Shown in pieces: positions 25,157-45,339 of a DNA stretch of 64,000 nucleotides. The translations under genes and the position numbers were made by a program. The stretch spans positions 174,219-238,218 of the forward strand of contig JAJDYE010000041.1 of NCBI GenBank assembly GCA_022822905.1, written 5' to 3'. Within the stretch, counting starts at the first letter, position 1. Each line of letters begins with the position of its first letter. This stretch comes from Acidimicrobiia bacterium (lineage in GTDB: Bacteria > Actinomycetota > Acidimicrobiia > Acidimicrobiales > Bin134). Under the pieces are notes generated by a model that saw only the letters and a program-made list of their open reading frames with translations, did not search any database and was not told where the DNA came from.

Positions 25157-26374
25157 TCAGTTTCTGAGAACAGGGTTCAACTGCTTGGGTTGCCAGCGGG
25201 TTGTCCCGGTGTCGGGGAATGCTTCGGGGGGTGGGACGACTCTGTGCCTGCCGGTTTGGCTGTCTTGTTCTACTTCGTGCTGTCGTTCGTGGATGTCGTG
25301 GTGGCAGTCGTTGCATACCAGCACGAGGTTGGGGTAGTCGGTTTTGCCGTTGTTCTTCCAGTGTTGGATGTGGTGGGCGAAGCTGCGATTGGCGTCGGCC
25401 CCGCAGCCCACACACGCTTTGTCGCGCACCATCAGGGCGACTCTCTGGGCGTCTGAGGCGCAGCGGCGCCGCCGTCCCAGCCACAAGTCCTGGGTTCTGG
25501 CATTGAACACCGCCGGAAAGATGTCTGCCTCGCGCGCCAGCTTGACCAGCTCCTTGGCGGGAAGCGGCGTGCCGTCACAAACTCTGGCGTTAACCAGTTC
25601 CTTGTGGGCGGCGTCGTAGTCGGCCACCAGCACCAGCGCGACGCCTGCGGCCTTCCCCCTCTCAGGATGCAAAACCAGCTCCGCCAAAGCGTCAGCGGAG
25701 CGCTGGGCGTGGGTGCGCCGAGCCTTGGGATCCTCTGCGCGCCACAGCTCTTTCTCCTTGTGGGCAAGCACCCCAGCGATGTGGCTGCCGGTAACCGGGT
25801 CGAACTCCGCGTTGAGCACATACATACCCGTGTCGCCGTTTTGGAACAGCCGGGCCGAGCGCTTCTGCTTTCGCCGGTCGTGGATCGACTGCCCGCCGTC
25901 GCCCGACAACTCGTGCTGCTGGCGCTTGACGGTCTTGGCCAACTCGTCGTAGGTCTGGGTCTTGGCCGCCTCCACGAGTTCGCGTTCGTCGATCGGCCCC
26001 TCAGACGATGCCCGGGCGATCAACCGCGCATGGTCCGCAGGCACCTCGCCCGAAGCCAAAGCCTCACAAGTCGCGGCCAAACCGGCCAGCCGCTCAGCCG
26101 CCTTCACGTCGTGGTGGGCTTTGGAGGGAGACGACCGCAGCACCTCACGGGCCATCTTCTTGGCCCCCGATGTGTCATGGCGGCGAGCCATCTCGGCCAT
26201 CGTCTGAGCCTTCAACGCCTCCAACTGCGACTCAGCCTCTCCCAAAAGCCCCAACCGCTTGCGCAAACCGGCATCAGACAACCCGGCCACATCCACGCGA
26301 TCAACGCACACCGTAGCCCCGCAACCGCCACCGGCGGTCCCGGTCTCCGAGTTCGAAGAAGGCGAAAACTCCAT
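25157..26374 (-). CDS. DUF222-type HNH endonuclease domain protein
   Basis: DKACVGCGADANRSFAHHIQHWKNNGKTDYPNLVLVCNDCHHDIHE; N-terminal DUF222/13E12-like helical region. Confidence 0.85.
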   Translation of the reverse strand: MEFSPSSNSETGTAGGGCGATVCVDRVDVAGLSDAGLRKRLGLLGEAESQLEALKAQTMAEMARRHDTSGAKKMAREVLRSSPSKAHHDVKAAERLAGLAATCEALASGEVPADHARLIARASSEGPIDERELVEAAKTQTYDELAKTVKRQQHELSGDGGQSIHDRRKQKRSARLFQNGDTGMYVLNAEFDPVTGSHIAGVLAHKEKELWRAEDPKARRTHAQRSADALAELVLHPERGKAAGVALVLVADYDAAHKELVNARVCDGTPLPAKELVKLAREADIFPAVFNARTQDLWLGRRRRCASDAQRVALMVRDKACVGCGADANRSFAHHIQHWKNNGKTDYPNLVLVCNDCHHDIHERQHEVEQDSQTGRHRVVPPPEAFPDTGTTRWQPKQLNPVLRN

Positions 26375-26584: not shown

Positions 26585-29500
26585 CTAGCAGCCGGGTTTG
26601 GTGGCGTCGAGGACGACCATGGATATTCTGCGGGCTTCCTCGGGGGCCAGGTCTTGCTCGAGGCGCTGCTGTAGCTCCTCGGCTGTTGCAGGCCGATGAC
26701 CGTGGGGCGGGGAGGTGGGCTTGCTGTTTTCGCGTCCGAACCAGATCGGCATGTAGATGCCATAGCCGCTGGTGGTGGGATCGGTGGTGTACCGGCTGAC
26801 GAGTTGGTTGCGGGGCGCAGTCCAAAGGTCGGGGTGGGTGTCTTTCTTCAGTTCGATGGGGATGTTGTGGCCGCCATAGCTCACACGGATGTCGGCGCGG
26901 GTGCCTGCGGCGTAGTGGCCTTCCGGCACGGTATCCACCTCGGCGGGAAGGGCATTTCGCAGGAGTTCGAGTATTGCGTCTCGACAGGAGTTTTCGGGCT
27001 TCGGATCGGTGGGGATGCCATTTGAGTCTTCGTTCCAGAACTGGCGCCACAGATTGCTGCTGTCGCCCCGGAGGCGATCCGATATCTCATGCAGCTTTAC
27101 CTTTACCAATGCAGCCAGATCCGCCGCGTTGGCGGGCAGGGTGTTGCTGAGAGTGCTTTGGACCTGGTCGATGTCGGGGTGGACGTAGGAGGCGTCACCA
27201 AAGAGAATACTCTGGCTCTCCAAAGCGCCCTGGATATAGCCATGCCAGGCAGCGAGTTGTGGGGCATCGGCCAGGCTGGTCAGCGCCTCATGGGCTTCTT
27301 TGCTCGGCATAGCGCCAAGCTGTGAGATCATTCCGTAGACGCGCTCTGATGCGTGGTATTCCAGGGTTACCGAGCCGCTCGACAACATCAGCGGCTCATA
27401 GAGGCGACCCAACGTTTGAATCGCATCGTGCAGTAGGGCAGGGTCAGAGCATATGGCCATGATCCCAGGGCCGAGCGCCCCGCCCTCGGAGCTGTTGCGC
27501 AGGAACTCGGCCAAGAGCCTGGTTCGGTCATCGTTGTTGCCGATGAAATCTTTGAGCGCTTGTCGATGATGGTCTGGTGAGAGGAGGGCGCCAGCGATCA
27601 GCCACCGCACCTTTTGTGCATCAGTGGCGCTCTTGGCCCCTAGCTTTTTCTCGACGACAGACACCAGCGAGGCCCGGTCAGGGAATCGCAAGGCTCGGCC
27701 CAGCAGCCGGTCGAGCAAGGGCAGCTGCGTGCTGGGGGCTCGTACCGGAAACGCTCGGAGAAGCCGAGCCCTGGTTTCGTTGACCCGTTTGGCCTGGCCT
27801 TCGACCCGGTCGAGGTCATAGAGCCCCGGCGGGTATTCGTCTCCGGACTTGAGAGCAGCGACAGCGCACCGGTAGAGAATATCGAACACCAGATCGGGAT
27901 CCTGATACAGCCAGCGGTCGTGGCTCGGGGCTGTTGAAACATGGCGAAGGGTGTCGGGAACGCAATAGCGGATGGCGAGGATCTTGCGCCTCTGGTCGTC
28001 GCTGAGCTGGTCCAAACGCGAAGGCGATCCCGCTAGGAGAATGTCGAGGCTGGCAAACACGGGGTAGGCCAGGAAGTGATGGCGGGATTCGGAGTAAAGC
28101 GAGAGTGTTCTATCGACCTCGGGCAGGTCGTCTCGAAACGCTGTCTCGCGCAGTGCAGTGAGAACCACAGACACCAGTTCGGATTCGCCTCCCAAGAAAT
28201 CCCTGATGCGGTCTTGCGGGAGCGCGTGCTGGTCGACGTCATGGAACAGGGCGAAGTAGACCCCGGCCAGAGTATGCAGAAACTGCGGGACAGCCTGATT
28301 TTCCTTCAGCTCAGCTTCCCGTATACGCACCATTTCCGCCCATTCAGATTGCTGCTGGCGCTTGCTTCGTTCGTGTTCTTCTCTGCGTTTTTGCAGTGCT
28401 TGCTCCCATTCTCTTTGCTCTTCGCTGGGAGGCGGAGGGCTGCACAGCTCCCCCAGCAGCGCTGCTAGCCGGCTGTTGCCCTTCGTCCGATTCTGCAAGT
28501 CTTCAAGCGTGAGACCGTCGCTGATGGATGGGTCTTCCAGAGAGCGGTATGCCTGCTGGAGCAGCTTTTCGGAGACGAGCGGCTCGGAATCTGCCAGGTG
28601 AAGCGCCGTGTCGAGGCACCAATGGCCGAAGTCGCCCGGAAGCCGGCTCCAATGCAGGGCGTTGCAGCCCCAGGGCCAGAGAACCTCGAAGCGCTCGCTG
28701 GCCTCGCATCGCCTTATCCATGTCAAAAACATGGATTTCTGGGTTTCAGGGCGCTCTTCCAGCCACTCTTTGATTCGTTGATGGTGATTCTTCTCAGAGA
28801 ACCGATGCATGTCCTCTTGTGAGCGCTTCGGTGCATCCAGCCTGTCGAATAGACGGGATGGCTCAAGTCCGTCGCCCCACGCCTCCAACCCTCGGCTCAG
28901 CAGTTCAAGGGGCAGATCACCGAAACCGGCCTGCTCCAACGCCGAGAGAATCTGAGATCGGTCTTCGCCCAGGGAATCCAGTAGGGCGGCAACGTGGTCG
29001 CCGTCGGACTGCTCAATAAGATCCTGGTACCAGAACAGTGCAAAACGGCCGAGCAATTCACGGTTATTCCTAGGCAAGACATAGCCCCATACCTGCGAAG
29101 GGGGCAGATGGGCTGGGTACAGGTGTCGCAGCAGGGTTCCGCAAAGGTCATCTTCGGGATCGGACAGTGCTCGCGTGCGGATATCACCGAGAAGTCGGAG
29201 CGCGGAACGGGCTTGGGAGTCGCGTTCGGCAACTAGGCGAAGCCACACATCAAGCGCCAGCCGCCTTGTGAACGGAGGCTGCTCAGGGTTGCGAACAATT
29301 GCCTCAGTGTCCGACTCGAGATCGTCAAGCAAATGCAAGCTGGAGCTGTCGACGGCCGTTAGCACGGTCAAAACAAACTCCACGATCCGGTGTGTGCCAC
29401 CTGAAGGGTCGGGGTCGATTAGCAAGTCTCTGATGGCAGTCGCTGTGTCTGTCGATACGAGCGGAAGGAAAGCCCAGGCTGTGTTGTCTCGGAATCCGTC

Positions 29501-30745
29501 GATCCTCCCGTCGCGCTGCTCGTGGCCGAGCAATTGGCCAACGGCGGCGAATCGGGCCAGCGACTTCAGCAGGCGTTTCTTCTCGTTAGCGGAAAATCTG
29601 CCGATGTCCCCGTACAGGCCCACCCCCACGGGATCAGCGTTGATCAGCAGATTCCGTGCGCTGGAAGAATGGGCCGCAAGCCAAGCGGACAAGCCCCGCA
29701 GCGCGGTGACCACCCGATCATCTGTCGGCCTGGTCATCAACGCCACCACCCTTGAGGCCGGGAGTTCCTTGTCAATCAGCTTGGCGAGATAGCGGCCAGC
29801 CAGGAACTCTGCCAGGTGGCGGTGGGCAGGGCGATGACCGTATTCGTTTTCAGCGGCGAACAGCCTTGTCCTCAGCGCTCGCTCGCAGTCTTCCCCGGCC
29901 GGCAAGGCGGGAAGCATGTCGAACGAGTGGATCGGCACCGACCCACCGGTGTCAGTGTCGAGCGCAGCGGAGAATCCTGAGACATCCGCGATCAGATGCA
30001 AGGCACTCAGGTAACCGGCGGCGTCCAAGACAGCGCCATTAGATGAGACCCCAGCGCCAGCGCGGTGCTCTTCATTCTGCTCTGAGGCCATCTTCTGACA
30101 GGCCATCTCGAAGGTCTCCAGGCGGCTTTCCGGCCACTCGCCGCTGTGCGCCACCGCATCGGCCAGCAGCATCAGCGTTTGCGGGTTGCCAAGCAAGACG
30201 CTGAGACCTTGCTGCACAGCTTGGCGCTTGAACTCCTGCGCGCCAGCGGAGCCTGGCAGCGTGCCCAGCAGTTCGGCGATGCCGTCATCGCGCAGGGGAT
30301 CGAGGCGCAGAACAGCGACCAGCAAATCAGGGGAGACAGCTTCCAGGCTGCGGCAGTCGTTTCCGCCGAGCCAGTCAGCCTCTCGGCACGAAATGCGAAA
30401 ACTCGGGCGTCCAAGCTGGTCGAGCCGGCTGCGGACCTGATCCAGGGGAGACCGCCGGTCGACAACGCCGGCTCGCACCTCGTCGAGTCCATCGATGAAG
30501 AGGGTCTTGCCCCGCCACTCGGGGTGGGAATCCACCGAGAAGGCAATGAAGTCCCTGGCGCTCATATAGACGGCAACGTCGCCCAGTACCGCCTGCTCCC
30601 GCTTGAACTCAGTCGTCTTCCCTGAGCCAGGATCGCCGAGCAGCACATAGGCAGACCGCTCTCGGAAGTGGCTGAGCGGCGCGGAGGCATCGGCAGCTCT
30701 TCCGGTGTCCACTTCGGTACATGTGCGGGCGACATAATCGCTCAT
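26585..30745 (-). CDS. large NACHT-like/STAND P-loop NTPase with helical middle region and C-terminal PD-(D/E)XK-like domain (putative anti-phage)
   Basis: Walker A LLGDPGSGKTTEFKREQ, Walker B TLFIDGLDEVRAG, FRISCREADW; C-terminal RADIRVSYGGHNIPIELKKDTHPDLWTAPRNQLVSRYTTDPTTSGYGIYMPIWFG. Confidence 0.75.
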   Translation of the reverse strand: MSDYVARTCTEVDTGRAADASAPLSHFRERSAYVLLGDPGSGKTTEFKREQAVLGDVAVYMSARDFIAFSVDSHPEWRGKTLFIDGLDEVRAGVVDRRSPLDQVRSRLDQLGRPSFRISCREADWLGGNDCRSLEAVSPDLLVAVLRLDPLRDDGIAELLGTLPGSAGAQEFKRQAVQQGLSVLLGNPQTLMLLADAVAHSGEWPESRLETFEMACQKMASEQNEEHRAGAGVSSNGAVLDAAGYLSALHLIADVSGFSAALDTDTGGSVPIHSFDMLPALPAGEDCERALRTRLFAAENEYGHRPAHRHLAEFLAGRYLAKLIDKELPASRVVALMTRPTDDRVVTALRGLSAWLAAHSSSARNLLINADPVGVGLYGDIGRFSANEKKRLLKSLARFAAVGQLLGHEQRDGRIDGFRDNTAWAFLPLVSTDTATAIRDLLIDPDPSGGTHRIVEFVLTVLTAVDSSSLHLLDDLESDTEAIVRNPEQPPFTRRLALDVWLRLVAERDSQARSALRLLGDIRTRALSDPEDDLCGTLLRHLYPAHLPPSQVWGYVLPRNNRELLGRFALFWYQDLIEQSDGDHVAALLDSLGEDRSQILSALEQAGFGDLPLELLSRGLEAWGDGLEPSRLFDRLDAPKRSQEDMHRFSEKNHHQRIKEWLEERPETQKSMFLTWIRRCEASERFEVLWPWGCNALHWSRLPGDFGHWCLDTALHLADSEPLVSEKLLQQAYRSLEDPSISDGLTLEDLQNRTKGNSRLAALLGELCSPPPPSEEQREWEQALQKRREEHERSKRQQQSEWAEMVRIREAELKENQAVPQFLHTLAGVYFALFHDVDQHALPQDRIRDFLGGESELVSVVLTALRETAFRDDLPEVDRTLSLYSESRHHFLAYPVFASLDILLAGSPSRLDQLSDDQRRKILAIRYCVPDTLRHVSTAPSHDRWLYQDPDLVFDILYRCAVAALKSGDEYPPGLYDLDRVEGQAKRVNETRARLLRAFPVRAPSTQLPLLDRLLGRALRFPDRASLVSVVEKKLGAKSATDAQKVRWLIAGALLSPDHHRQALKDFIGNNDDRTRLLAEFLRNSSEGGALGPGIMAICSDPALLHDAIQTLGRLYEPLMLSSGSVTLEYHASERVYGMISQLGAMPSKEAHEALTSLADAPQLAAWHGYIQGALESQSILFGDASYVHPDIDQVQSTLSNTLPANAADLAALVKVKLHEISDRLRGDSSNLWRQFWNEDSNGIPTDPKPENSCRDAILELLRNALPAEVDTVPEGHYAAGTRADIRVSYGGHNIPIELKKDTHPDLWTAPRNQLVSRYTTDPTTSGYGIYMPIWFGRENSKPTSPPHGHRPATAEELQQRLEQDLAPEEARRISMVVLDATKPGC

Positions 30746-32019
30746 CTCGAATCGAACCAGTGGTCGGGAGGCAGAGCCAGAAACTCTTGGAGAGGCACGC
30801 CGGAACCTCCAACCAAGACTGTGTTGCGGGGTTGGAATCGGCCTTCGAACTCCGCCATGCCCCGAGTTGTCGTGGTGCCTTGTCCGCTCTTTGCCTCAAT
30901 GCCGACGAGATGCGGCCCGCGCTGGAGCACGAAATCGACCTCGTAGGCTTTGTCTCGCCAGTACTTGACCTCGGTCCTCGGCGAGACGGTATTCAGAAGG
31001 TGGGCACCGACGCAGCTTTCGACCAAGCGGCCCCAGTGGGAGCGGTCAGCCCGGGCCTCGTCGAAACTGTATCCGCAGACCGCAGACATGAGAGCGGTGT
31101 TGAGCACGTTCAACTTCGGGGTGGGCATCTTGGCCGACGCCGGGCGATTGGTGAGCTTGGGCAGCCCCGCGACCATGCCCACCTGATTTAGAAGCTCCAG
31201 GTACCGGGTCAGGGTGGTCGTGTTGCCCGCGTCTTGCAAATGGCCTTGCAACTTGCTGTACGAGACCTGCTGGCCGGAGTAGCGCGCCGCAAGATCGAAT
31301 AGCCGCTTGAGCAGCTCGGGCTTGTCCACCCTGGCCATCGACAGCACATCGCGCTCCACAACCGGCCCGATGAGAGAGCTGCGCACATATTGGCCCCAAC
31401 GATCGGGGTCGCCGATCCTGGCGGACGCGCCTGGGTAGCCGCCAAAGTAGATGTACTCTTCCAAGCTGAGGCCGAATGCCTCCGACATCTCTGGAAATGA
31501 CCAGTGTGGGAATTGGATCGGCTCAAACCGCCCGGCCAGGCTTTCGCGGAGGCCCTCCTGCATCAGCAGGGGCGCTGACCCGAGGACGACTACATGCAAG
31601 GGACAGCCTGCGAGACGGTCGGCGTCCCAGAGCCCTTTCACCACCTCCGACCAGCGGTCGATCCGCTGAATCTCATCCAGGACGAGAACGAAACCTCCTG
31701 GCGAGCGCATTGCCTGGTGACGGCAGTATTGCCAGACGTCGGTTAAGTAGCGGGCATCTGGCCGGGATACGGCGGGGATCCGAGCACCTGAATCCACCGC
31801 AGGGGACTCAAATCCCCCCTGAGGCAAGGGTGCCTTCGGTGCATCAAGAGACGCTTCCATCGCCTCATAGCGAGATTCCTGCTCAATGGCTGAAAGCGCT
31901 TGAAGCACCGCCGTCGTCTTACCAGTTTGGCGGGGACCGAAGATCGCGATGATGAACTCGGGCCGCTCCGACAGCCTATGAATAAGAGCGCTCACCTGCG
32001 CCCGACGAAACTCGGCCAT
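30742..32019 (-). CDS. AAA_14/DUF4143 family ATPase
   Basis: FIIAIFGPRQTGKTTAVLQAL, FVLVLDEIQRIDRW, VVLGSAPLLM; C-terminal VDFVLQRGPHLVGIEAKSG. Confidence 0.88.
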   Translation of the reverse strand: MAEFRRAQVSALIHRLSERPEFIIAIFGPRQTGKTTAVLQALSAIEQESRYEAMEASLDAPKAPLPQGGFESPAVDSGARIPAVSRPDARYLTDVWQYCRHQAMRSPGGFVLVLDEIQRIDRWSEVVKGLWDADRLAGCPLHVVVLGSAPLLMQEGLRESLAGRFEPIQFPHWSFPEMSEAFGLSLEEYIYFGGYPGASARIGDPDRWGQYVRSSLIGPVVERDVLSMARVDKPELLKRLFDLAARYSGQQVSYSKLQGHLQDAGNTTTLTRYLELLNQVGMVAGLPKLTNRPASAKMPTPKLNVLNTALMSAVCGYSFDEARADRSHWGRLVESCVGAHLLNTVSPRTEVKYWRDKAYEVDFVLQRGPHLVGIEAKSGQGTTTTRGMAEFEGRFQPRNTVLVGGSGVPLQEFLALPPDHWFDSR

Positions 32020-32048
32020 ACAACCAGCTTAACTGCAAGAGTTACATC

Positions 32049-32068
32049 TATGAGCAAATTTACTCATA
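32049..32068. promoter_or_regulatory. near-perfect palindrome upstream of the DUF4143-NTPase operon, candidate operator
   Basis: tATGAGCAAATTTACTCATa, one mismatched base pair in 20 bp, in an AT-rich intergenic patch. Confidence 0.45.
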
Positions 32069-32099: not shown

Positions 32100-34878
32100 T
32101 CAGATGAGGTCTAGGTTGGTTTGGTTGTCGGGGGGTTTTTGGGCTTGTTGGGTGAGGTCGGGCCAGGCGGCGGCGAGGCTGTTGTAGGCGAGGGCGTCGG
32201 CGGCCCATCCGTTGCGGTCGCAAATGTGGTGGAGGCGATAGGCGAGGTGGCGGGCCGCGTCGGCGAGGCCGCCGACCTGGGCGAGGAGTCGGGCGGCGGC
32301 TTGTTCGCCTCGGGTTTCGAGGCGGCGGGCGAGGTGGTTGGTGATCTCCCAGACGGTGAGGCGCTCGTCAGAGGCGGGAGACCAGTCCTCGTCGAGCTCG
32401 TGGCGGGGGATGAGGCGCACTCGGCCGGCCCGGGACTCGACGATGCCGGCCTGCACGAGGCCCTGCACTGAGGTGTTTCGGGATTTGGAGAGCTGCTCGG
32501 CCTGGCCGTAGTCGCCGGGCTCGAAACCGTTTTGGGCGTGCCAGGTGAGCGCCCAGCGGGTGTCGGAGTCGAGTTCGGCCTCGGTCGCCTCCAGGGTCTC
32601 ATCGAGCACCCGGTTGATGGCGGCCAAAGCGGCCCGCACCCCCATTCGGGCGCCGTCGGCCTCGATCACCCGGCTGTAACGGGAGAACACCGCCATGCCC
32701 GGCCCGATCGCGGCTTGCGCCACATCCACCGGCGCGATGCTGGCCGCCTGGAGATCGCCCAGCGCGGCGGGCAGCTCCGCGGCCAGCGCGTCCAAGAACT
32801 CGCGGCGCGACGCCAACGGCGCGCCCTCGGGCCGGGGCCGGCACACCAGAACAATCGACGACGCCAGCGCGTTGGACTGCTGCGAGCGCATCCGGTTGGC
32901 CAGCTCCGAGCGCACCGGCCACGTCCCGGTTATCTGGAAGCCCGCGCGCAGCAGCCCGGTGAGCATGGTCTCCCACCCCGTCGACGCCGTCGCCCCCTCC
33001 ACGGTTTCGGACTGCTTGAACGCGTAATACACGCTCAACGGGAACCCCGGATCCTGCGCCTGCCGCAGACGGGCGAACACACCGCCCAGCCCATCCTCGA
33101 AGAACTCCTCGGCCCCCCCTGTCGCCGCCGTGGCGATACGGCGCCGCGATCAACTCCTGAGCCTTGGGCGCCAGCAAAGTCGAGCACACATCCGGGAACA
33201 CCCTGCCCACCGTGCGGCGCAGCCACACATAGAAGAAATCCGACAAATCCGCATAGCCGATATTGTCGTAATACGGCGGATCCGTCGACACCACCACCGG
33301 ACCCCCAACCAAAGCCGACGCATCCCTCTGCACAACCACACCCCGCCCTTTGGCAGGAACAGCCGCCAGCGCCTTCTGCACGAAATCCACCATCGCCGAC
33401 CAGTTCCCCGTCGAATCAGAGAACGGGTTTGCCTCCACAAAGTCCCAGTTCATCGGAATCGCCTGCCGGGCAAAGGTGCTTCTCAGGCCGCGGGTTATGT
33501 CCCAGGTACACATCTGCGAGCCCCGATCGGCCAGCTTCGACACCGCGAACCCCAAGTACACCGACACGGCCTCGGTGTAGGCCGCCGCGCCGGTGCCGCC
33601 GTCCCTTAGCGGGGTGGGGTCGTCGCCCATCCCGGCGGCCAGCGCGTCGGCGCGGGCCTGCTCTCGGGCCTCGCCCACCAGATCGGCGAAACAGCACAGG
33701 ACGGTGAGCTGGCGGGGCGTGAACAGATCGGCCCACTCCCCCATGCCATAGCGCTGCACCCGGAAACCCAGCGCCTCATCGGGCAGACGGCCGGCAGGCG
33801 GGTCAGGGGGCGGCGGGATGCAAGCGGCCTGCTCGTGGAACGGGTCGGACGGCAGGTAGACGCGTCGGCTGTCACCTTGGGCGACGACGGCCATGAGCCG
33901 GGCGCCGAGCCCATCCCCTTGGGCCTGGGCCCGAACGTGGTCTGTGGGCATGGCCGAAGAGCAGAACACGTAGCGGAACTGGGCTCGGCCCTGCTTTGGT
34001 GCCTCCGACGGCCCGCCCTCACCGCCGCCGATCTCATACCGGACGGTCTTGGCCGCGTGGTCTGCCACCGGCTCGATCCACGCCTGGCGGCCCTTCTTCT
34101 TCGACAGCCACCACGACGACGCCAAGGGCGCCTCGGCCCCGCACACCGGATTCGGACAGCGCGCCGTGCGGGTCCACAACCACGCGATCACCGGCGCCTT
34201 GCCGCCGCCGTGCTCGGCGGGCAACTCCACCTCCGGGTACAGATGCCCGATCCGCTCCCCAGCCCGCTGGCGCATCCAAGACCCGTACCAGCGCACATCG
34301 CAGGCCAAACCCGACGCGCCCGGCCACGACCCCAAACCAGCGCTCTGACGGTCACCGGGGTTCACTGGCGCCCGCCCGGCGAACACCGGCGGAATCTCCA
34401 CCAAAGCCTTGTTGATCAACACCGCCACCGGATTCAAATCCGACCCATGTGCCTCCAACCCCAAACGCTGAGCCTCCAAAGGAATACTCCCCCCGCCCGC
34501 GAACGGATCCAACACTGAGGGAAGCCCGCCATCGCAGCACTTGGCGATCTCCGCCCGAGCCTCGCCCAGCACCCCGGCATCGCCGCTGTTCTCCCACTGC
34601 ACCAACCGCTCCACCAGACCGAACAGGCGCTCCCGCTCCGCGCCCTGCGCCTCCTCGGTGGGGAACAGATCAGGCCGGGCCGACGGATCATCCACCAAAG
34701 ACGCGAACAACACCGCCCGACACGCCGCCAACGGCCGCCGAGCCCACCACAAATGCAGAGTGGAAGGATGGCCATGGCGAATCGACTTCTCCCGAGCCGA
34801 CGCCGCATTGATCGCATCCAGCGGCAACGCCACCTCGATCAACTTCCGCCGGAACCCGTAGTCAGCCATCAGCGCCAC
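32100..34878 (-). pseudogene. DUF1156-type DNA (adenine) methyltransferase split by a single-base frameshift at a G7 run (33113-33119); pseudogene, phase-variable or sequencing artefact
   Basis: ORF 32599..34878 (MADYGFRRKLIEVALPLDAINAASAREKSIRHGHPSTLHLWWARRPLAACRA, DPFAGGGSIPLEA, TDPPYYDNIGYADLSDFFYVWL) continues as family-like sequence in the frame of ORF 32100..33080 (EEFFEDGLGGVFARLRQAQDPGFPLSVYYAFKQSET). Confidence 0.85.
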
Positions 34879-38064: not shown

Positions 38065-40806
38065 ATGAGCAACTCATGGGATTGGCCCGGCTCTCGTTGG
38101 TGGCGCGTCGACCTCCACGCCCATTCCCCAGCCTCCTACGACTTCGGGACCAAGGCAGACCGCGACAACCCAGACTGGACAGCTTGGATTGACGCAGTAC
38201 GTGACGCCGGAATCCATGCTGTCGCAATTACTGACCACAACACCGCCACGGGAATACAACATCTTCAGACTGCCGCTTCCCAGCTTCCCCATGCTCCAGT
38301 CCTCTTCCCTGCCGTAGAAGCCACCGTCAGCGACGGCGTCCACCTACTGCTTCTCATGGACCCTGCGCACACTCAACAACACATTGAAGCCGTCTTGTCG
38401 CAATTGAACATCTCTGTCGATGAGCAAGGAACAACTGAAGGCCAGTCCACCCTAAGTGTCCAGGACGTCTTCGAAGCTGTGGGAAGAGATGTGCTAATCG
38501 TCGGTGCTCATGTGAACGACAAAAAGGGAATACTGACGCAATACAAAGGCCTGCCCCTGCAAAGGATTCTAAACGACCAACATCTCCATGCCGTAGAGGT
38601 GGTTCCAACCCCCAATGCTGAGATAGACCTTTCAACAGCCGAACAACAACTTACTGGACGTCGTACTGGACTTCGACGAGTACCAAGAATATGGGCATCC
38701 GATGGTCATTCTTCCAATGACCTTGGATGCCGATTTACTTGGGTAAAGATGACCACACCATGCTACGAGGGTCTCCGCCTAGCACTCCTTGATGGTGACG
38801 ATTCGCTGCAGCCTTCCGAAGAATCGAATCAGGACAATCCAAACAACAACCACGCTACCTTAGCTATCGAGAGCATAAGCATTGCGGACGCAAAATATAT
38901 CGGGAGAAAAGAACCTGTCATTGTAAACTTCAATCCTTGGCTCAATACAATCATCGGGGGTCGAGGAACCGGGAAATCCACGATAGTCGACTTCTGCCGA
39001 AAGACATTCCGACGAGACTTTGAATTGGATCGAAGCAGCACTGGCGACGAAGGGTCTCTCAGGAGTGTCTTTGACCGTAGAATGAGCGACTCCTCTCAAC
39101 AAGGCGACGGATTAGCTACAGGAAAAACCATTGTCGAAGCAATTTATCGGAAGAACGGGGAGCGTTTTATCGTCTCTTGGAGTATTGATGGTAGTGCACA
39201 AGCTATCTCCCGTATCGATGGTGAAAATAAAGTTCCAGAAGATGGCAACATAAGTGAACTCTTTCCTGTAAGAATTTATAGTCAAAAGCAACTTTTTGCC
39301 CTCGCACAACATCCTAATGCCCTTTTGACAGTCATCGACCAAAGTAATCGTGTCAATGAAGCAGAAATACAGCGTACTGCCAAACAACATCTTGAACAAT
39401 ATTTGTCTCTGCGCGCGCAAGCGCGGGCAGCTCGCTCTTCTTCCGAAGACTTGCCAGATAGGCAAGCCGCGCTTCGCGACGTCGAGCGGAAATTGAATAT
39501 TCTTCAGGATGGAGAAAATGCAATCACTCTGAGCGAATACCGACTTCGGCGCCAACAAGATGATACCTGGCAAGTAATTCTAAACACTGCTATCAGCAAG
39601 ATTGATACAATTGAGCTGTCTACACGTGACCTCACCGTTGCGGATCTTGAAATAATTTCTAATGATAAACCTGACGAAGCATCAGAAAGTCTCACCAACA
39701 CACATGCTAATGTTAAGAAAGTGGTAGACGAACTGAAGCAAGAGATATTGAACCTTATAGCTGAAGCAAAACTCGAGATTGATGAGATCCAATCAAGCCC
39801 AGATGCCAGCGTGTGGAACGCCGCAAAAGCCGACAGTGATGCAAAATTTGAGGCTCTATCAGCCACACTTGCAAAAGAAGGGGTTGCCAGCATTGACGAA
39901 TACGATAGTCTTTTGCACCAAGCTGCCTCTCTCAAACAGGAAATCTCACGAATTGAAGGCGAGACTCGCCGATCAGAAGAACTAGACATCGAGGCTCAAA
40001 TCGTTCTGTCCAAGCATCGCGAACTACGCGAGGAACTAAGCACCAGACGACTGCAGTTCATTGCTACCGAAACAAGTGGAGAAATAATTCGTGTAACGAT
40101 AACACCCAATGGGAGTTGTGCTGCTCTCCGAACTGCACTTGCGACAGCATTTGGATTTGATAGTTTCGAGAGCGACCGCGAAACATTATTCGAAAGAATA
40201 AGCCCTTCTTCTGACCAGGAATGGGACTGGCAGAGGCTGGACTCCGTCCTTTCAGATTTGATGGCAATTCGTTCTGGTAAAGAACCTGCATGGACCCTCA
40301 AAGATCGTCGGTTCTTGAACGCCGTCAAGAAAGCAACTCCAGAAGCAATTGATCGTTTGGCACTTTACCTCCCCCAAGACACGGTTACGGTAGAATACCA
40401 GGATCAGAACAGTAAGAAGTGGAAGGACTTATCTCAAGGATCTCCAGGCCAGCAAACAGCTGCATTACTGGCATTCGTTCTTGGGTATGGCTCTGAACCC
40501 ATCATTTTGGACCAGCCAGAAGATGATCTAGACAATACCCTCATTTATGAACTTCTGGTCAGCCGTTTGCGTGAAGCCAAGTTTGACCGGCAGGTCATTG
40601 TCATTACTCACAACCCGAATATCGTAGTACATGGTGATGCCGAATTGCTGATTTCCCTTGCAAGTGTCAGCGGTCGAACAAAAATCACTCGTCAAGGAGG
40701 ACTGCAGGAAGAGGATGTTCGGGAAGAGATCTGCCGTGTGATGGAAGGCGGCCGCGAAGCATTTGAACGCCGTTATCAACGTATTATGACTTCGGCAGGT
40801 GTGTAA
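38065..40806 (+). CDS. PHP-domain + SMC/ABC-type ATPase (TrlF-like architecture)
   Basis: PHP RVDLHAHSPASYD; Walker A IIGGRGTGKSTIVDF; coiled coil; signature LSQGSPGQQTAALLAFVL; Walker B PIILDQPEDDLDN; VIVITHNPNIV. Confidence 0.88.
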   Translation: MSNSWDWPGSRWWRVDLHAHSPASYDFGTKADRDNPDWTAWIDAVRDAGIHAVAITDHNTATGIQHLQTAASQLPHAPVLFPAVEATVSDGVHLLLLMDPAHTQQHIEAVLSQLNISVDEQGTTEGQSTLSVQDVFEAVGRDVLIVGAHVNDKKGILTQYKGLPLQRILNDQHLHAVEVVPTPNAEIDLSTAEQQLTGRRTGLRRVPRIWASDGHSSNDLGCRFTWVKMTTPCYEGLRLALLDGDDSLQPSEESNQDNPNNNHATLAIESISIADAKYIGRKEPVIVNFNPWLNTIIGGRGTGKSTIVDFCRKTFRRDFELDRSSTGDEGSLRSVFDRRMSDSSQQGDGLATGKTIVEAIYRKNGERFIVSWSIDGSAQAISRIDGENKVPEDGNISELFPVRIYSQKQLFALAQHPNALLTVIDQSNRVNEAEIQRTAKQHLEQYLSLRAQARAARSSSEDLPDRQAALRDVERKLNILQDGENAITLSEYRLRRQQDDTWQVILNTAISKIDTIELSTRDLTVADLEIISNDKPDEASESLTNTHANVKKVVDELKQEILNLIAEAKLEIDEIQSSPDASVWNAAKADSDAKFEALSATLAKEGVASIDEYDSLLHQAASLKQEISRIEGETRRSEELDIEAQIVLSKHRELREELSTRRLQFIATETSGEIIRVTITPNGSCAALRTALATAFGFDSFESDRETLFERISPSSDQEWDWQRLDSVLSDLMAIRSGKEPAWTLKDRRFLNAVKKATPEAIDRLALYLPQDTVTVEYQDQNSKKWKDLSQGSPGQQTAALLAFVLGYGSEPIILDQPEDDLDNTLIYELLVSRLREAKFDRQVIVITHNPNIVVHGDAELLISLASVSGRTKITRQGGLQEEDVREEICRVMEGGREAFERRYQRIMTSAGV

Positions 40807-40808
40807 CC

Positions 40809-42035
40809 GTGGTAAGCGCTAATGAGTTGTACAGACGTATCTTGCTTGGAGAAGATTCGACGCTGGAACTCAAGAGAGTGCTTTTCTCAGGAAATAAGGT
40901 GACGGACCCAAGCCGGAAATCCTTTTCTGACGAACTCGCTGGAATGGCCAATAGCGTCGGTGGCACTATTTTGCTAGGCGTCGACGACAAGACCCGTGAC
41001 ATTATTGGAATTCCAGTGGATCGATTAGATTTGGTAGAGACATGGATTCGGGAAATCTGTAACGATTCGATCAAACCCCCCTTGGATGTGACTATAAGAA
41101 AGATCGAATTGCCGTTGAGTTCAGATAGGAGCTCCCCTATCATTCGGATAGATGTGCCCCGTAGTCTGTTTGTACACATGAGTTCCGGTGGCTACTTCAC
41201 AAGGATTGGAAGTTCGAAACGCGAGATGGCGCCTGAGATTCTTTCCCGTCTATTCCAAGAGCGGAGCCAAAGCAGAGTCATCCGATTCGATGAGTCGATA
41301 GTCCCTACCTCTTCTCAGGATGACTTGGATGGACCCTTGACTACCCGATTCGTCCGCGGAGGAGACTCCGACGACGACAGCGTGCTACGAAAGCTTCGGA
41401 TTGTTGCAGATGATGACGAGGGGATTGCGCGTCTTACGGTTGCAGGCGTGCTGCTGTGCGTCACCGAACCAATCCAGTGGATGCCCCATGCGTATATTCA
41501 AGCTATCAGCTACACCGGTGAACGCTCCGATGTGAACTATCAAAATGACGCTCGAGACTTTACTGGACCTCTTGACTCTCAAGTCATGGAAGCTCTCGGC
41601 TTTGTGCGCAGAAATATGTTTGTCGAGGCAGACAAGCAGATAGCTCGGGTCACCCGTCCTCAATTCAGTGAACGAGCCGTGTTCGAGGCGTTGGTCAATG
41701 CGGTCGCCCACCGCGACTATTCGATGGCAGGTGCCCGAATTCGCCTCCACATGTTCCGTAACCGACTAGAGCTCTATGTTCCTGGCCCACTAGTCAACAC
41801 GCTGACACCCGATAGTCTGCACCTAAGGCAGTACAGCAGGAACGAGCTCGTAGTCTCCTTACTCTCTCGATGCCCGGTGGACCCATCTGGCCTGCTGGAA
41901 CGTTCTCACATGATGGAGAAGCGAGGAGACGGTGTCCCAATTATTCTGGAAGAAAGCATCCAATTGTCCGGTCAAACCCCGGAGTACACGTTGATCGATG
42001 ACAGTGAACTCCGGCTAGTGATCTGGTCTAGCTAG
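40809..42035 (+). CDS. AlbA_2 (Schlafen-type) / ATP-binding HTH-like regulator
   Basis: LLGEDSTLELKRVLF...FSDELAGMANSVGGTILLGVDDKTRDIIGI; VFEALVNAVAHRDYSMAGARIRLHMFRNRLELYVPG. Confidence 0.85.
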   Translation: MVSANELYRRILLGEDSTLELKRVLFSGNKVTDPSRKSFSDELAGMANSVGGTILLGVDDKTRDIIGIPVDRLDLVETWIREICNDSIKPPLDVTIRKIELPLSSDRSSPIIRIDVPRSLFVHMSSGGYFTRIGSSKREMAPEILSRLFQERSQSRVIRFDESIVPTSSQDDLDGPLTTRFVRGGDSDDDSVLRKLRIVADDDEGIARLTVAGVLLCVTEPIQWMPHAYIQAISYTGERSDVNYQNDARDFTGPLDSQVMEALGFVRRNMFVEADKQIARVTRPQFSERAVFEALVNAVAHRDYSMAGARIRLHMFRNRLELYVPGPLVNTLTPDSLHLRQYSRNELVVSLLSRCPVDPSGLLERSHMMEKRGDGVPIILEESIQLSGQTPEYTLIDDSELRLVIWSS

Positions 42036-42273
42036 CGACCACTCTCCCATGGAGTTGGATTGCTTATGGCGTGGAAATGTTTGACCGCCCAACCCAACGT
42101 TGCTCTCATTTCATTCAAGACTTGCCCATCTGCATACTATTGACTCACAACTCACGCTTGAACGACCCTTTAGGAAGCCAATCTACCGGTATCGCCGCAC
42201 CCAAATTCTTGAACATTCCAGGCCCAGAGCAGGTCAACCCATACACCCGCAAACCTTCGCCTAGAGTCGATTC

Positions 42274-45200
42274 ATGGGTTTAGAAGGCCATATCGATCTC
42301 AGCGAGCTAATCTCGCGGTTGGCAAACCGTTCCCGCCGTGGTCGCACAGAGGCAACGCTCCAGGCAGATATTCGTATGCTGCTCTTGGCTGCAAGGTTGA
42401 ACCTCACTGAGGACGACGTGCTGGATGTTGATTTGGAGGCGCCGCTCGCGGACCGGCGACGCATCGACATCGAGATGGGCCGCACTGTCATCGAAGTTAA
42501 GCGGAACCTGACTTCAAGAGGCTCGCTGGACGACGCGGCTGGCCAGCTTGCTGGATACGTGGAGATGCGAAGCCAGAGTCTCGCGCAGCAGTATGTGGGC
42601 ATCATCACTGATGGGTGTGACTGGCACCTGTTCCACCACACCGATAGTGGGTTAGTGGCTGTAGCGGAGCATCACGTGGATTCGGCAGCGCCCAACGTAG
42701 AAGCGCTGGTGACCTGGCTTTCTTCGGTGCTTACAACAGAAGAGTTAATTGAACCGACCAGACAAGCGATAGCAGATCGGATCGGGGCAGCCAGCCCCGG
42801 CCATGAACTTGAACGCGCAACGTTGCGCTCTCTTTACGATGCCCACCACAGCAACCCCGAGATCGCGATCAAGCGTGAGCTATGGGCGAAGCTACTAACC
42901 ACGGCGCTGGGAACCCAATTCAGTGCCGATGAGGAGGACTTGTTTATCGAGCACACCCTGCTGGTTGCCACTGCGGAGTGCGTCGCACATGCTGTCCTGG
43001 GCTATTCGATCTCCCAGCTTCCGTCGGCAACTCTGCTACGGGGCGAGCTTCTGTCCAACGAGTCTCAGATTCACGGGGTTGTCGAGCAGGATTTCTTCGA
43101 CTGGCCGCTGGACTGCGGAGACCCGGGACGGCGATGGGTCACCTCCCTCGCTCGCAGGCTTGAGCAGTTCGACTGGGGTACCGTCACCCACGATGTGATG
43201 AAGACCATCTACGAGTCCGTCATCACCGTCGAGACCCGAAGACGCCTAGGTGAGTACTACACGCCGGATTTCCTGGCAGAAGCCATCACTGAGGAGGCTG
43301 TGGCCGAACCCCTCATCGAAACGGTCATGGATCCAGCCTGCGGATCGGGCACGTTTCTGTTCCACGCTGTCCGGCGCTATCTGGAGGCGGCTGATCGGGC
43401 CGACATGTCTAACGGTGATGCTGTCGCCGGCGTCTCTTCGCACGTCTTTGGTGTGGATGTCCACCCCGTTGCTGTGACCCTGGCCCGTGTGACCTATCTG
43501 CTGGCAATCGGCACAGAACGATTGGCGGCACCGGACAGGCGGCCGCTGCGGATTCCGGTGTTCTTGGGCGACAGCATTCAGTGGGGCCAGCGCGGTGACA
43601 TCTTCGCGTCTGAAACGCTCAACGTCAGTACTGATGATGGAGCGGAGATGTTTGCCGACCAACTCCGATTCCCGCAGCGGCTACTAGACGACGCTGACAC
43701 CTTCGATGCTCTGGTGGCCGATATGGCCGAACTGGCCACAGACCGGGAGCGGGGCCAGGACGCGCCGTCGATTGCTGGGCTAGCAAGGCGCCACGGTCTT
43801 TCTGGAACTGACCTGGAGACCGTTGAGGCGACGTTCAAGACGATGTGCCGACTGCATGACGAGCACCGTGACCACATTTGGGGCTACTACGTGAGAAATC
43901 TGGCCCGACCCGCTTGGCTGGCCCGCAAGGAGAATCGGCGAACTGTTCTGGTTGGGAATCCTCCATGGCTCGCGTATCGGTACATGACAGATGCCATGAA
44001 GGCCGTATTCCAGCTGATGGCCAAAGAGCGCAAGCTTTGGGCTGGCGGAAACGTTGCTACTCACCAAGATCTTGCCGATCTGTTTGTTGCACGATCTGTG
44101 GAGCAGTACCTCGCACCTGGTGGCCGGTTCGCGTTTCTGATGCCCGCGGGCGTGTTGACCCGCGGACAGTCAGCAGGATTTCGATCTGGGGTGTTCCCGC
44201 TCAGCAGGGAAGGTCGCACCCTTGTAGAGTTCGACCCCGCCTGGGACATCTCGCCAATCAGCCACCGGTTCTTCCCCCGCACCGCTTGCGTGGCCTTCGG
44301 CAGGCGCTCAGACAGGCACGCCGCCCTTCCCGAAGAAGTGGAGCGGTGGTCGGGTAACCTTACAGACCCAGGCGCCCCGTGGGCCGAGGTGCAGAAAACC
44401 ATTGAGCGACAGAGAGCTAAACGGGTCAGCATCGAAAGTGACAACGAAATTGAATCGCCCTACAAGGAGCGCTTCGCTAATGGTGCCAACCTCACCCCGC
44501 GAATGTTGATCATGGTGGAATTTGATAAGGAGCCACCGCTCGGTGTCGGCGAGGGTCGAAGACCAGTGCGCTCTTCTAGGGGCATCTACGAGAATGACCC
44601 TTGGAAATCAATGGACGATCTAAAAGGGGTCATCGAATCACAATTTATCCACCAAGTGCTGCTCGGCGAATCGGTCATGCCCTTCTGGCAGCGTAGACCC
44701 CTCGAAGCAATCCTTCCGCTGCGTAGGGGCAAAATCATGCGGAATGAAGAAATCGATGACCATCAAGGACTGAAGCGCTGGTGGCAAGAGGCCCGGCCGT
44801 TGTGGGACCAGCACGGCAAAGGCGACCAGACTCTCGACGAGAACATCAACCACTATCGCAAGTTGACCTCCCAGTTCCCTCTCGCTCCAATCCGCGTGGT
44901 TTACGGTGCTTCTGGAATGCACGTAACAGCCTGCCGTGTGATGGACGAGCAGGCGATCGTGGAACATCAGCTCAACTGGGCTGCTGCACGAACAATCGAA
45001 GAGGCCCAATACCTTTGCGCTGTCCTCAACAGCGTGGCCGTAACGAAAGCCGTAGAACCTTTTATGACCTCAGGCAAGGGAGGCGGACGTCACATCAACT
45101 CCTATCTCTGGAGATTGCCCATACCGCTCTACAACACCGGAGACGAACTCCACAAAAGCCTCGCTCACCTTGGAGACCAAGCCGAGCAGTTCGTGGAAGG

Positions 45201-45339
45201 CCTGGAAATCAAGCCCTCGAAAGCCCACGGTACGATGCGGGCAAGAATTCGCAAACAACTGGCTGAGAATGAACTAGGCCAAGAAATCGAGAAGACAGTC
45301 GGGTTCCTGCTCCATCAAGCAGGAGCCCCGACCCTATAG
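42274..45339 (+). CDS. type IIG-like restriction enzyme / N6-adenine DNA methyltransferase
   Basis: N-terminal DRRRIDIEMGRTVIEVKRNL (nuclease-like), MTase motif I DPACGSGTFLFHAV, motif IV VGNPPWLAYRYM. Confidence 0.87.
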   Translation: MGLEGHIDLSELISRLANRSRRGRTEATLQADIRMLLLAARLNLTEDDVLDVDLEAPLADRRRIDIEMGRTVIEVKRNLTSRGSLDDAAGQLAGYVEMRSQSLAQQYVGIITDGCDWHLFHHTDSGLVAVAEHHVDSAAPNVEALVTWLSSVLTTEELIEPTRQAIADRIGAASPGHELERATLRSLYDAHHSNPEIAIKRELWAKLLTTALGTQFSADEEDLFIEHTLLVATAECVAHAVLGYSISQLPSATLLRGELLSNESQIHGVVEQDFFDWPLDCGDPGRRWVTSLARRLEQFDWGTVTHDVMKTIYESVITVETRRRLGEYYTPDFLAEAITEEAVAEPLIETVMDPACGSGTFLFHAVRRYLEAADRADMSNGDAVAGVSSHVFGVDVHPVAVTLARVTYLLAIGTERLAAPDRRPLRIPVFLGDSIQWGQRGDIFASETLNVSTDDGAEMFADQLRFPQRLLDDADTFDALVADMAELATDRERGQDAPSIAGLARRHGLSGTDLETVEATFKTMCRLHDEHRDHIWGYYVRNLARPAWLARKENRRTVLVGNPPWLAYRYMTDAMKAVFQLMAKERKLWAGGNVATHQDLADLFVARSVEQYLAPGGRFAFLMPAGVLTRGQSAGFRSGVFPLSREGRTLVEFDPAWDISPISHRFFPRTACVAFGRRSDRHAALPEEVERWSGNLTDPGAPWAEVQKTIERQRAKRVSIESDNEIESPYKERFANGANLTPRMLIMVEFDKEPPLGVGEGRRPVRSSRGIYENDPWKSMDDLKGVIESQFIHQVLLGESVMPFWQRRPLEAILPLRRGKIMRNEEIDDHQGLKRWWQEARPLWDQHGKGDQTLDENINHYRKLTSQFPLAPIRVVYGASGMHVTACRVMDEQAIVEHQLNWAAARTIEEAQYLCAVLNSVAVTKAVEPFMTSGKGGGRHINSYLWRLPIPLYNTGDELHKSLAHLGDQAEQFVEGLEIKPSKAHGTMRARIRKQLAENELGQEIEKTVGFLLHQAGAPTL

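What the first reader, a model, noticed from the sequence alone, without database searches (positions are those of the whole stretch)
26585..32068. Two-gene operon: DUF4143 ATPase coupled to a 1386-aa NACHT-like NTPase ending in a PD-(D/E)XK-like domain
Seen: the genes overlap by 4 nt (30742-30745), implying translational coupling. The large protein has the P-loop near its N-terminus (GDPGSGKT, TLFIDGLDEV), ~1000 aa of Leu/Ala-rich helical sequence, and a C-terminal RADI-(12)-ELK motif followed by QLVSRY. Established: STAND/NACHT NTPases in bacteria (e.g. Avs, bNACHT) are anti-phage sensors, usually with the effector N-terminal and the sensor C-terminal. Inference: here the order seems inverted (NTPase first, nuclease last). 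A DUF4143 ATPase, itself carrying VDFVLQ..GIEAKS, is the partner and a palindrome lies just upstream, so this is a candidate undescribed defence module.
Basis: partly seen in the sequence, partly recalled or inferred. Interest (0 to 1): 0.72.

Follow-up and report, generated by a model that had tools for sequence, protein, structure and literature searches.

The report
Operator-controlled EruA-like phage-defence gene pair
The two genes form a conserved operon in which a large NACHT-type protein with a nuclease at its tail, a distant full-length relative of the named antiphage protein EruA, is translationally coupled to a DUF4143 ATPase whose relatives carry a matching palindromic DNA site in front of their genes, which suggests that the ATPase binds that site and regulates the operon.

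Summary
In detail: a DUF4143 ATPase (425 aa) and a 1386-aa NTPase overlap by 4 nt, with a palindrome upstream. The large protein is not undescribed: it matches NCBIfam 'antiphage protein EruA' over its whole length (849 bits), but below the curated cut-off (1000). Its C-terminal domain is a PD-(D/E)XK nuclease (conserved residues, confident model, nuclease-dominated fold hits), so the effector-last order is real, but EruA relatives in general share it. What is new is the pairing. I found 28 EruA+DUF4143 pairs in 18 genomes of about ten phyla, always DUF4143 first and tightly coupled. Trees of both proteins fit one recruitment with two later losses. The palindrome is one copy of a conserved operator, TGAGTAAAWTTACTCA (18/25 pairs, 1/31 solo EruA, 18/1120 random stretches). 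It also precedes 22 of 28 unpaired relatives of this DUF4143, so it belongs to the DUF4143 protein, probably an autoregulator that brought EruA under its control. In four pairs the EruA nuclease site is destroyed while the DUF4143 motif stays intact, so a second-effector role remains possible. Verdict: a new variant of a known kind. Nothing was tested experimentally.

The parts
26585..30745 (-). EruA-family NACHT-type NTPase, 1386 aa: P-loop at residues 37-44, Walker B 84-89, long middle region, C-terminal PD-(D/E)XK domain
   Evidence: NCBIfam NF058535 EruA 848.6 bits, residues 7-1380 vs 1-1316 of 1318, cut-off 1000; 4 of 15 homologues match Pfam NACHT
26588..27268 (-). C-terminal PD-(D/E)XK nuclease domain of the large protein (residues 1160-1386); E1251, E1275, D1285, E1298-x-K1300, Q1314-L-x3-Y1319
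   Evidence: motif conserved in homologues; AlphaFold2 pLDDT 89.1; Foldseek PDB hits dominated by PD-(D/E)XK nucleases (Can2, Can1, BspD6I, Bax1, SfsA, McrC)
30742..32019 (-). DUF4143 ATPase, 425 aa: AAA_14 P-loop domain, presumed winged-helix middle, C-terminal PD-(D/E)XK-type motif E334, D362, E375-x-K377
   Evidence: Pfam DUF4143 8.3e-27 and AAA_14 6.5e-18; PADLOC PDC-S01 1.9e-146; motif columns conserved in paired relatives; fold hits to SSO1545 and Orc1/Cdc6
30742..30745 (-). 4-nt ATGA overlap of the two genes (translational coupling)
   Evidence: sequence; a start codon within -3 to +6 nt of the DUF4143 stop in the 16 homologous pairs examined
32049..32068 (.). palindromic operator TATGAGTAAATTTGCTCATA (gene direction), core at -47 to -32 from the DUF4143 start
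   Evidence: conserved in paired and unpaired DUF4143 loci; nearly unique in the genome

Best explanation
This is a two-gene variant of the EruA type of bacterial NLR-like defence, controlled by a DUF4143 ATPase. SHOWN by sequence: EruA family membership of the large protein; C-terminal PD-(D/E)XK domain; one ancient DUF4143+EruA pairing; an operator that travels with this DUF4143 subfamily. INFERRED: the DUF4143 protein (AAA+ ATPase, winged helix, nuclease-like tail) binds the palindrome in front of its own gene and holds the operon at low level. On infection the middle region of the EruA protein senses a phage product, its NACHT module binds ATP and oligomerises, and the clustered C-terminal nucleases cut DNA, stopping the phage or the infected cell. 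DUF4143 may also lend its own nuclease.
For: Whole-length EruA match. Nuclease: D1285, E1298, K1300 and Y1319 kept in all 31 solo and 22 of 26 paired homologues; model pLDDT 89.1 and nuclease-dominated fold hits. Pairing: 28 pairs in 18 genomes, DUF4143 always directly upstream. The EruA tree puts all 25 paired rows with 2 solo rows in one clade at SH-aLRT 100; the DUF4143 tree has the paired proteins on one side of a branch, support 94. Distances of partners correlate, r = 0.845, 0 of 5000 permutations as high. Operator: 18/25 paired loci within 4 mismatches vs 18/1120 random stretches, p about 1e-24, and 22/28 unpaired DUF4143 relatives, an independent set. L057, a paired-clade member that lost DUF4143, keeps a perfect palindrome and a 29-residue DUF4143 remnant. 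DUF4143 fold hits include DNA-binding AAA+/winged-helix Orc1/Cdc6.
Against: No experiment exists here for any step. The EruA match is below the curated cut-off and the source paper for EruA was not found. DNA binding by DUF4143 is deduced from co-travelling, not shown; the winged-helix part of the model has low confidence. No sigma-70 consensus was found around the site. Seven of 25 pairs, all in the Bacteroidota/Rhodothermota-like part of the trees, lack the operator. Many pairs come from metagenome-assembled genomes, so phylum labels may contain binning errors.
Confidence: 0.52

Rival explanations
1. DUF4143 is a second effector: it forms a complex with EruA and supplies an additional or alternative PD-(D/E)XK nuclease, the operator being only ordinary autoregulation.
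For: In four pairs (L093, L094, L095, L100) the EruA nuclease residues are gone while the DUF4143 E-D-E-x-K residues remain (28 of 29 proteins keep the D, all keep the E-x-K). No solo EruA has lost its site (0 of 31; Fisher p = 0.038). Tight coupling and correlated distances.
Against: The four losses need as few as two events on the tree, three are in one genome, and all lie in one part of the tree; unpaired DUF4143 proteins are common.
Confidence: 0.27
2. Toxin-antitoxin-like unit: EruA is a toxic nuclease that DUF4143 holds inactive, with the antitoxin-like gene first and autoregulated.
For: Order, overlap and upstream operator resemble autoregulated toxin-antitoxin operons (sequence; the resemblance is from general knowledge).
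Against: Most EruA relatives have no DUF4143, and two members of the paired clade lost it yet keep long intact EruA frames with all catalytic residues (L052, L057). This DUF4143 subfamily also stands alone with the same operator.
Confidence: 0.1
3. The palindrome is bound by an unrelated host regulator, or is a leftover recombination site, and DUF4143 has no regulatory role.
For: Binding was not tested; seven of 25 paired loci lack the site.
Against: The same core precedes DUF4143 genes in several phyla but not solo EruA genes (1/31, itself a former pair), and 17 other DUF4143 genes of the same genome lack it. A site shared across phyla without a shared neighbouring regulator points to the DUF4143 protein. 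In the window's genome no second copy flanks either pair.
Confidence: 0.11

Closest known systems
EruA (NCBIfam NF058535, NACHT domain-containing antiphage protein)
   Same: Whole-length profile match; same NTPase-first, nuclease-last layout
   Different: Scores 849, below the curated cut-off of 1000; belongs to a clade that carries an upstream DUF4143 gene and operator; the best-scoring EruA members checked (L102, L103, L090) lack that partner
HyoA (NCBIfam NF058534, NACHT domain-containing antiphage protein)
   Same: Weak match over most of the protein (133 bits)
   Different: Far below its cut-off of 1200; EruA fits much better
Bacterial NACHT (bNACHT) and Avs STAND defence proteins
   Same: NACHT-type NTPase; PD-(D/E)XK nuclease as effector in some members
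   Different: Described architecture is N-terminal effector, central NACHT, C-terminal sensor (PMC12169576); here the NTPase is N-terminal and the effector C-terminal
PDC-S01 (PADLOC candidate; DUF4143/AAA_14 ATPases)
   Same: Small protein matches PDLC04791 at 486 bits, and all 28 paired relatives match the same model
   Different: Annotated as a stand-alone candidate of unknown function; here the gene is fixed in front of EruA

Membership tests
EruA (NF058535) | match over the whole model | tested here: met
   residues 7-1380 vs model 1-1316 of 1318, E 1.2e-254
EruA (NF058535) | score above the curated equivalog cut-off of 1000 bits | tested here: not met
   848.6 bits; the second copy 811. 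Two paired relatives do pass (L061 1026.8, L058 1000.0)
EruA (NF058535) | antiphage activity | not testable with these tools
   only the family name says so; source paper not found
bNACHT / STAND defence protein | NACHT-type NTPase with Walker A and B | tested here: met
   G40, G42, K43, D85 and D88 near-invariant; 4 of 15 homologues hit Pfam NACHT, this protein itself does not
bNACHT / STAND defence protein | N-terminal effector, central NACHT, C-terminal sensor | tested here: not met
   P-loop at residue 37 leaves no room for an N-terminal effector; the nuclease is C-terminal; canonical order from PMC12169576
PD-(D/E)XK nuclease (C-terminal domain) | fold and D-(x)n-E-x-K active site | tested here: met
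   D1285, E1298, K1300 conserved; model pLDDT 89.1; top PDB matches are PD-(D/E)XK nucleases, best E 7.9e-4 with low TM-scores
PD-(D/E)XK nuclease (C-terminal domain) | DNA cleavage | not testable with these tools
   needs purified protein
DUF4143 / PDC-S01 | AAA_14 plus DUF4143 domains; PDC-S01 profile | tested here: met
DUF4143 / PDC-S01 | role in defence | not tested
   PADLOC lists it as a candidate; [quoted passage not shown]

The most novel reading that the evidence does not exclude
A widespread subfamily of DUF4143 ATPases, of unknown function, are palindrome-binding AAA+ regulators with a conserved operator in front of their own genes. One such regulator was captured once in front of an EruA-type NLR-like nuclease and has spread across phyla as a self-regulating two-gene immune module, in some lineages replacing the EruA nuclease with its own.
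Probability: 0.4. Interest if true: 0.68.

Novelty: new variant of a known kind. Interest (0 to 1): 0.55.

Why it matters
DUF4143 ATPases are very common (PDC-S01 is called the fourth most common defence across all prokaryotes in PMC12988326) and have almost no literature (one paper in the held library names the domain). A conserved operator gives a concrete biochemical handle on what one subfamily does. The pair also offers a natural experiment, the same EruA-type effector with and without a regulatory or nuclease partner, and a clear case of a NACHT protein with its effector at the C-terminus.

Tried and rejected
Undescribed family: rejected, since it matches EruA over its full length. Known AVAST/Avs membership: no PADLOC hit for the large protein. 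Obligate pair for all EruA: rejected, since most distant EruA relatives are solo. Operator belonging to EruA: rejected (1 of 31 solo loci). Operator common to all DUF4143 genes: rejected, since 17 others in the genome lack it, though several have other palindromes. Transposon-like terminal repeats: no second copy flanks the pairs in this genome. An E. coli EruA reference: the DNA search found nothing. Direct PDB sequence searches gave only P-loop matches. Literature for EruA/HyoA was not found in the held library.

Full report
OBSERVATION. On the minus strand a 425-aa gene (32019-30742) is followed by a 1386-aa gene (30745-26585); stop and start overlap as ATGA. The small protein matches Pfam DUF4143 and AAA_14; the large one matches no Pfam family. 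A second copy of the whole pair, with the same 4-nt overlap, lies on contig C2 of the same genome.

WHAT THE LARGE PROTEIN IS. NCBIfam scores it 848.6 bits against NF058535, 'NACHT domain-containing antiphage protein EruA', over residues 7-1380 and model positions 1-1316 of 1318. The curated cut-off of 1000 is not met, so I call it an EruA-family homologue, not EruA itself. In a 15-member alignment the invariant residues cluster in the P-loop/Walker B region and at the C-terminus: E1251, E1275, D1285, E1298, K1300, Q1314, L1315, Y1319. The C-terminal 227 residues were modelled with mean pLDDT 89.1. The PDB matches are led by PD-(D/E)XK nucleases (Can2, Can1, Cdn1, BspD6I, Bax1, SfsA, McrC), with modest E-values (best 7.9e-4) and low TM-scores. 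Motif and fold together make a PD-(D/E)XK nuclease domain very likely. The usual described order in bacterial NACHT proteins is effector, NACHT, sensor (PMC12169576). Here the NTPase is first and the nuclease last, but solo EruA relatives have the same order, so this is a family trait.

THE PAIR IS REAL AND OLD. From genome and contig searches I found 28 distinct pairs in 18 genomes: the window's genome (2) and one of the same order, Sva0996, Chloroflexota, Nitrospinota, Latescibacterota, Dadabacteria, several Pseudomonadota, Gemmatimonadota, Bacteroidota and Rhodothermota, most as metagenome-assembled genomes. DUF4143 is always directly upstream on the same strand; in the 16 pairs examined a start codon of the large gene lies within -3 to +6 nt of the DUF4143 stop. 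About 30 more distant EruA relatives have no such partner, including the three best NF058535 scorers: L102 (1439 bits), L103 (1318) and L090 (1227). In the EruA tree all 25 paired rows and only two solo rows form one clade with support 100; the label needs three changes, as one gain and two losses would give. The two solo members look like losses. L057 keeps a 29-residue DUF4143 remnant immediately before the gene. L052 has an unrelated ORF in that place which I read by eye as an IS110-type transposase; that identification was not tested. In the DUF4143 tree the 27 paired proteins are separated from 27 unpaired relatives by one branch (support 94). Distances within the two proteins correlate at r = 0.845 (0 of 5000 permutations as high).

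THE PALINDROME IS A CONSERVED OPERATOR. Within 4 mismatches it is found upstream of DUF4143 in 18 of 25 usable pairs, against 18 of 1120 random 150-nt stretches of the same loci and 1 of 31 solo EruA genes; that one is L057, the former pair. The final paired count uses corrected gene starts and a slightly different scan from the random control, so the p-value of about 1e-24 is approximate. In the window's 3.8-Mb genome only three sites come within 3 mismatches, two of them in front of its two pairs; 17 other, more distant DUF4143 genes there lack it. A test on sequences not used to find the motif gave a clear answer: 22 of 28 unpaired relatives of this DUF4143 (about 37-49% identical), from genomes of the window's own phylum, Gammaproteobacteria, and plasmids of Thermus, Collinsella and Bacteroides, carry the core in front of their gene. 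So the operator belongs to this DUF4143 subfamily. The outer half-sites differ: paired loci have ATTACG...CGTAAT, unpaired ones TTACTCA...TGAGTAA. The DUF4143 model (pLDDT 73.7, weak in the middle) matches SSO1545 and DNA-binding Orc1/Cdc6 AAA+/winged-helix proteins. I infer that the protein binds its own operator. No sigma-70 consensus was found there by the simple scan.

NUCLEASE SITES. The EruA site is intact in 31 of 31 solo and 22 of 26 paired proteins; L093, L094, L095 and L100 have lost it. DUF4143 keeps E334, E375 and K377 in all paired proteins and D362 in 28 of 29. The difference is weak statistically (Fisher p = 0.038) and may be only two events, but it keeps alive the idea that DUF4143 can act as the nuclease.

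MECHANISM. Shown: family, nuclease domain, pairing, operator. Inferred: repression of the operon by DUF4143; sensing of a phage product by the middle of the EruA protein; ATP-driven oligomerisation; DNA cleavage by the C-terminal domain. The antiphage role rests on the family name alone, since the source paper was not in the held library.

VERDICT. It is not an unknown family but an operator-controlled two-gene variant of the EruA kind.

Noticed in passing
32599-34878 (-): DUF1156 methyltransferase matching PADLOC HmaB (692 bits) only over model 8-629 of 967, so probably a truncated Hma gene next to the pair.
   Followed up: partly
38065-45339 (+): Further defence-like genes: Ppl/TrlF-family ATPase (38065-40806), a protein with weak pAgo-profile similarity (40809-42035) and a type IIG restriction-methylase (42274-45339). 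The pair lies in a defence island.
   Followed up: partly
L041 2348-5029 and 6929-10963: A Pantoea agglomerans plasmid also carries Ppl near an EruA relative, with one small gene and an integrase between them.
   Followed up: no
own genome, L109 and L113: Other DUF4143 genes have different strong palindromes upstream (TGAAATTCCACTATTGCATAGTAGAATTTCA; ATCTACTGTTAGACAGTAGAT), suggesting that each subfamily may have its own operator.
   Followed up: no
G406 (L054, L092-L095), G407 (L055, L097-L099): Single Bacteroidota/Rhodothermota-like genomes hold four or five divergent copies of the pair, some with a dead EruA nuclease site.
   Followed up: partly
L037 7482-11771: A distant EruA relative carries a MntA-like nucleotidyltransferase domain fused behind its nuclease.
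   Followed up: no
25157-26374 (-): HNH protein downstream of the pair, weak similarity to IscB only in the HNH part.
   Followed up: no
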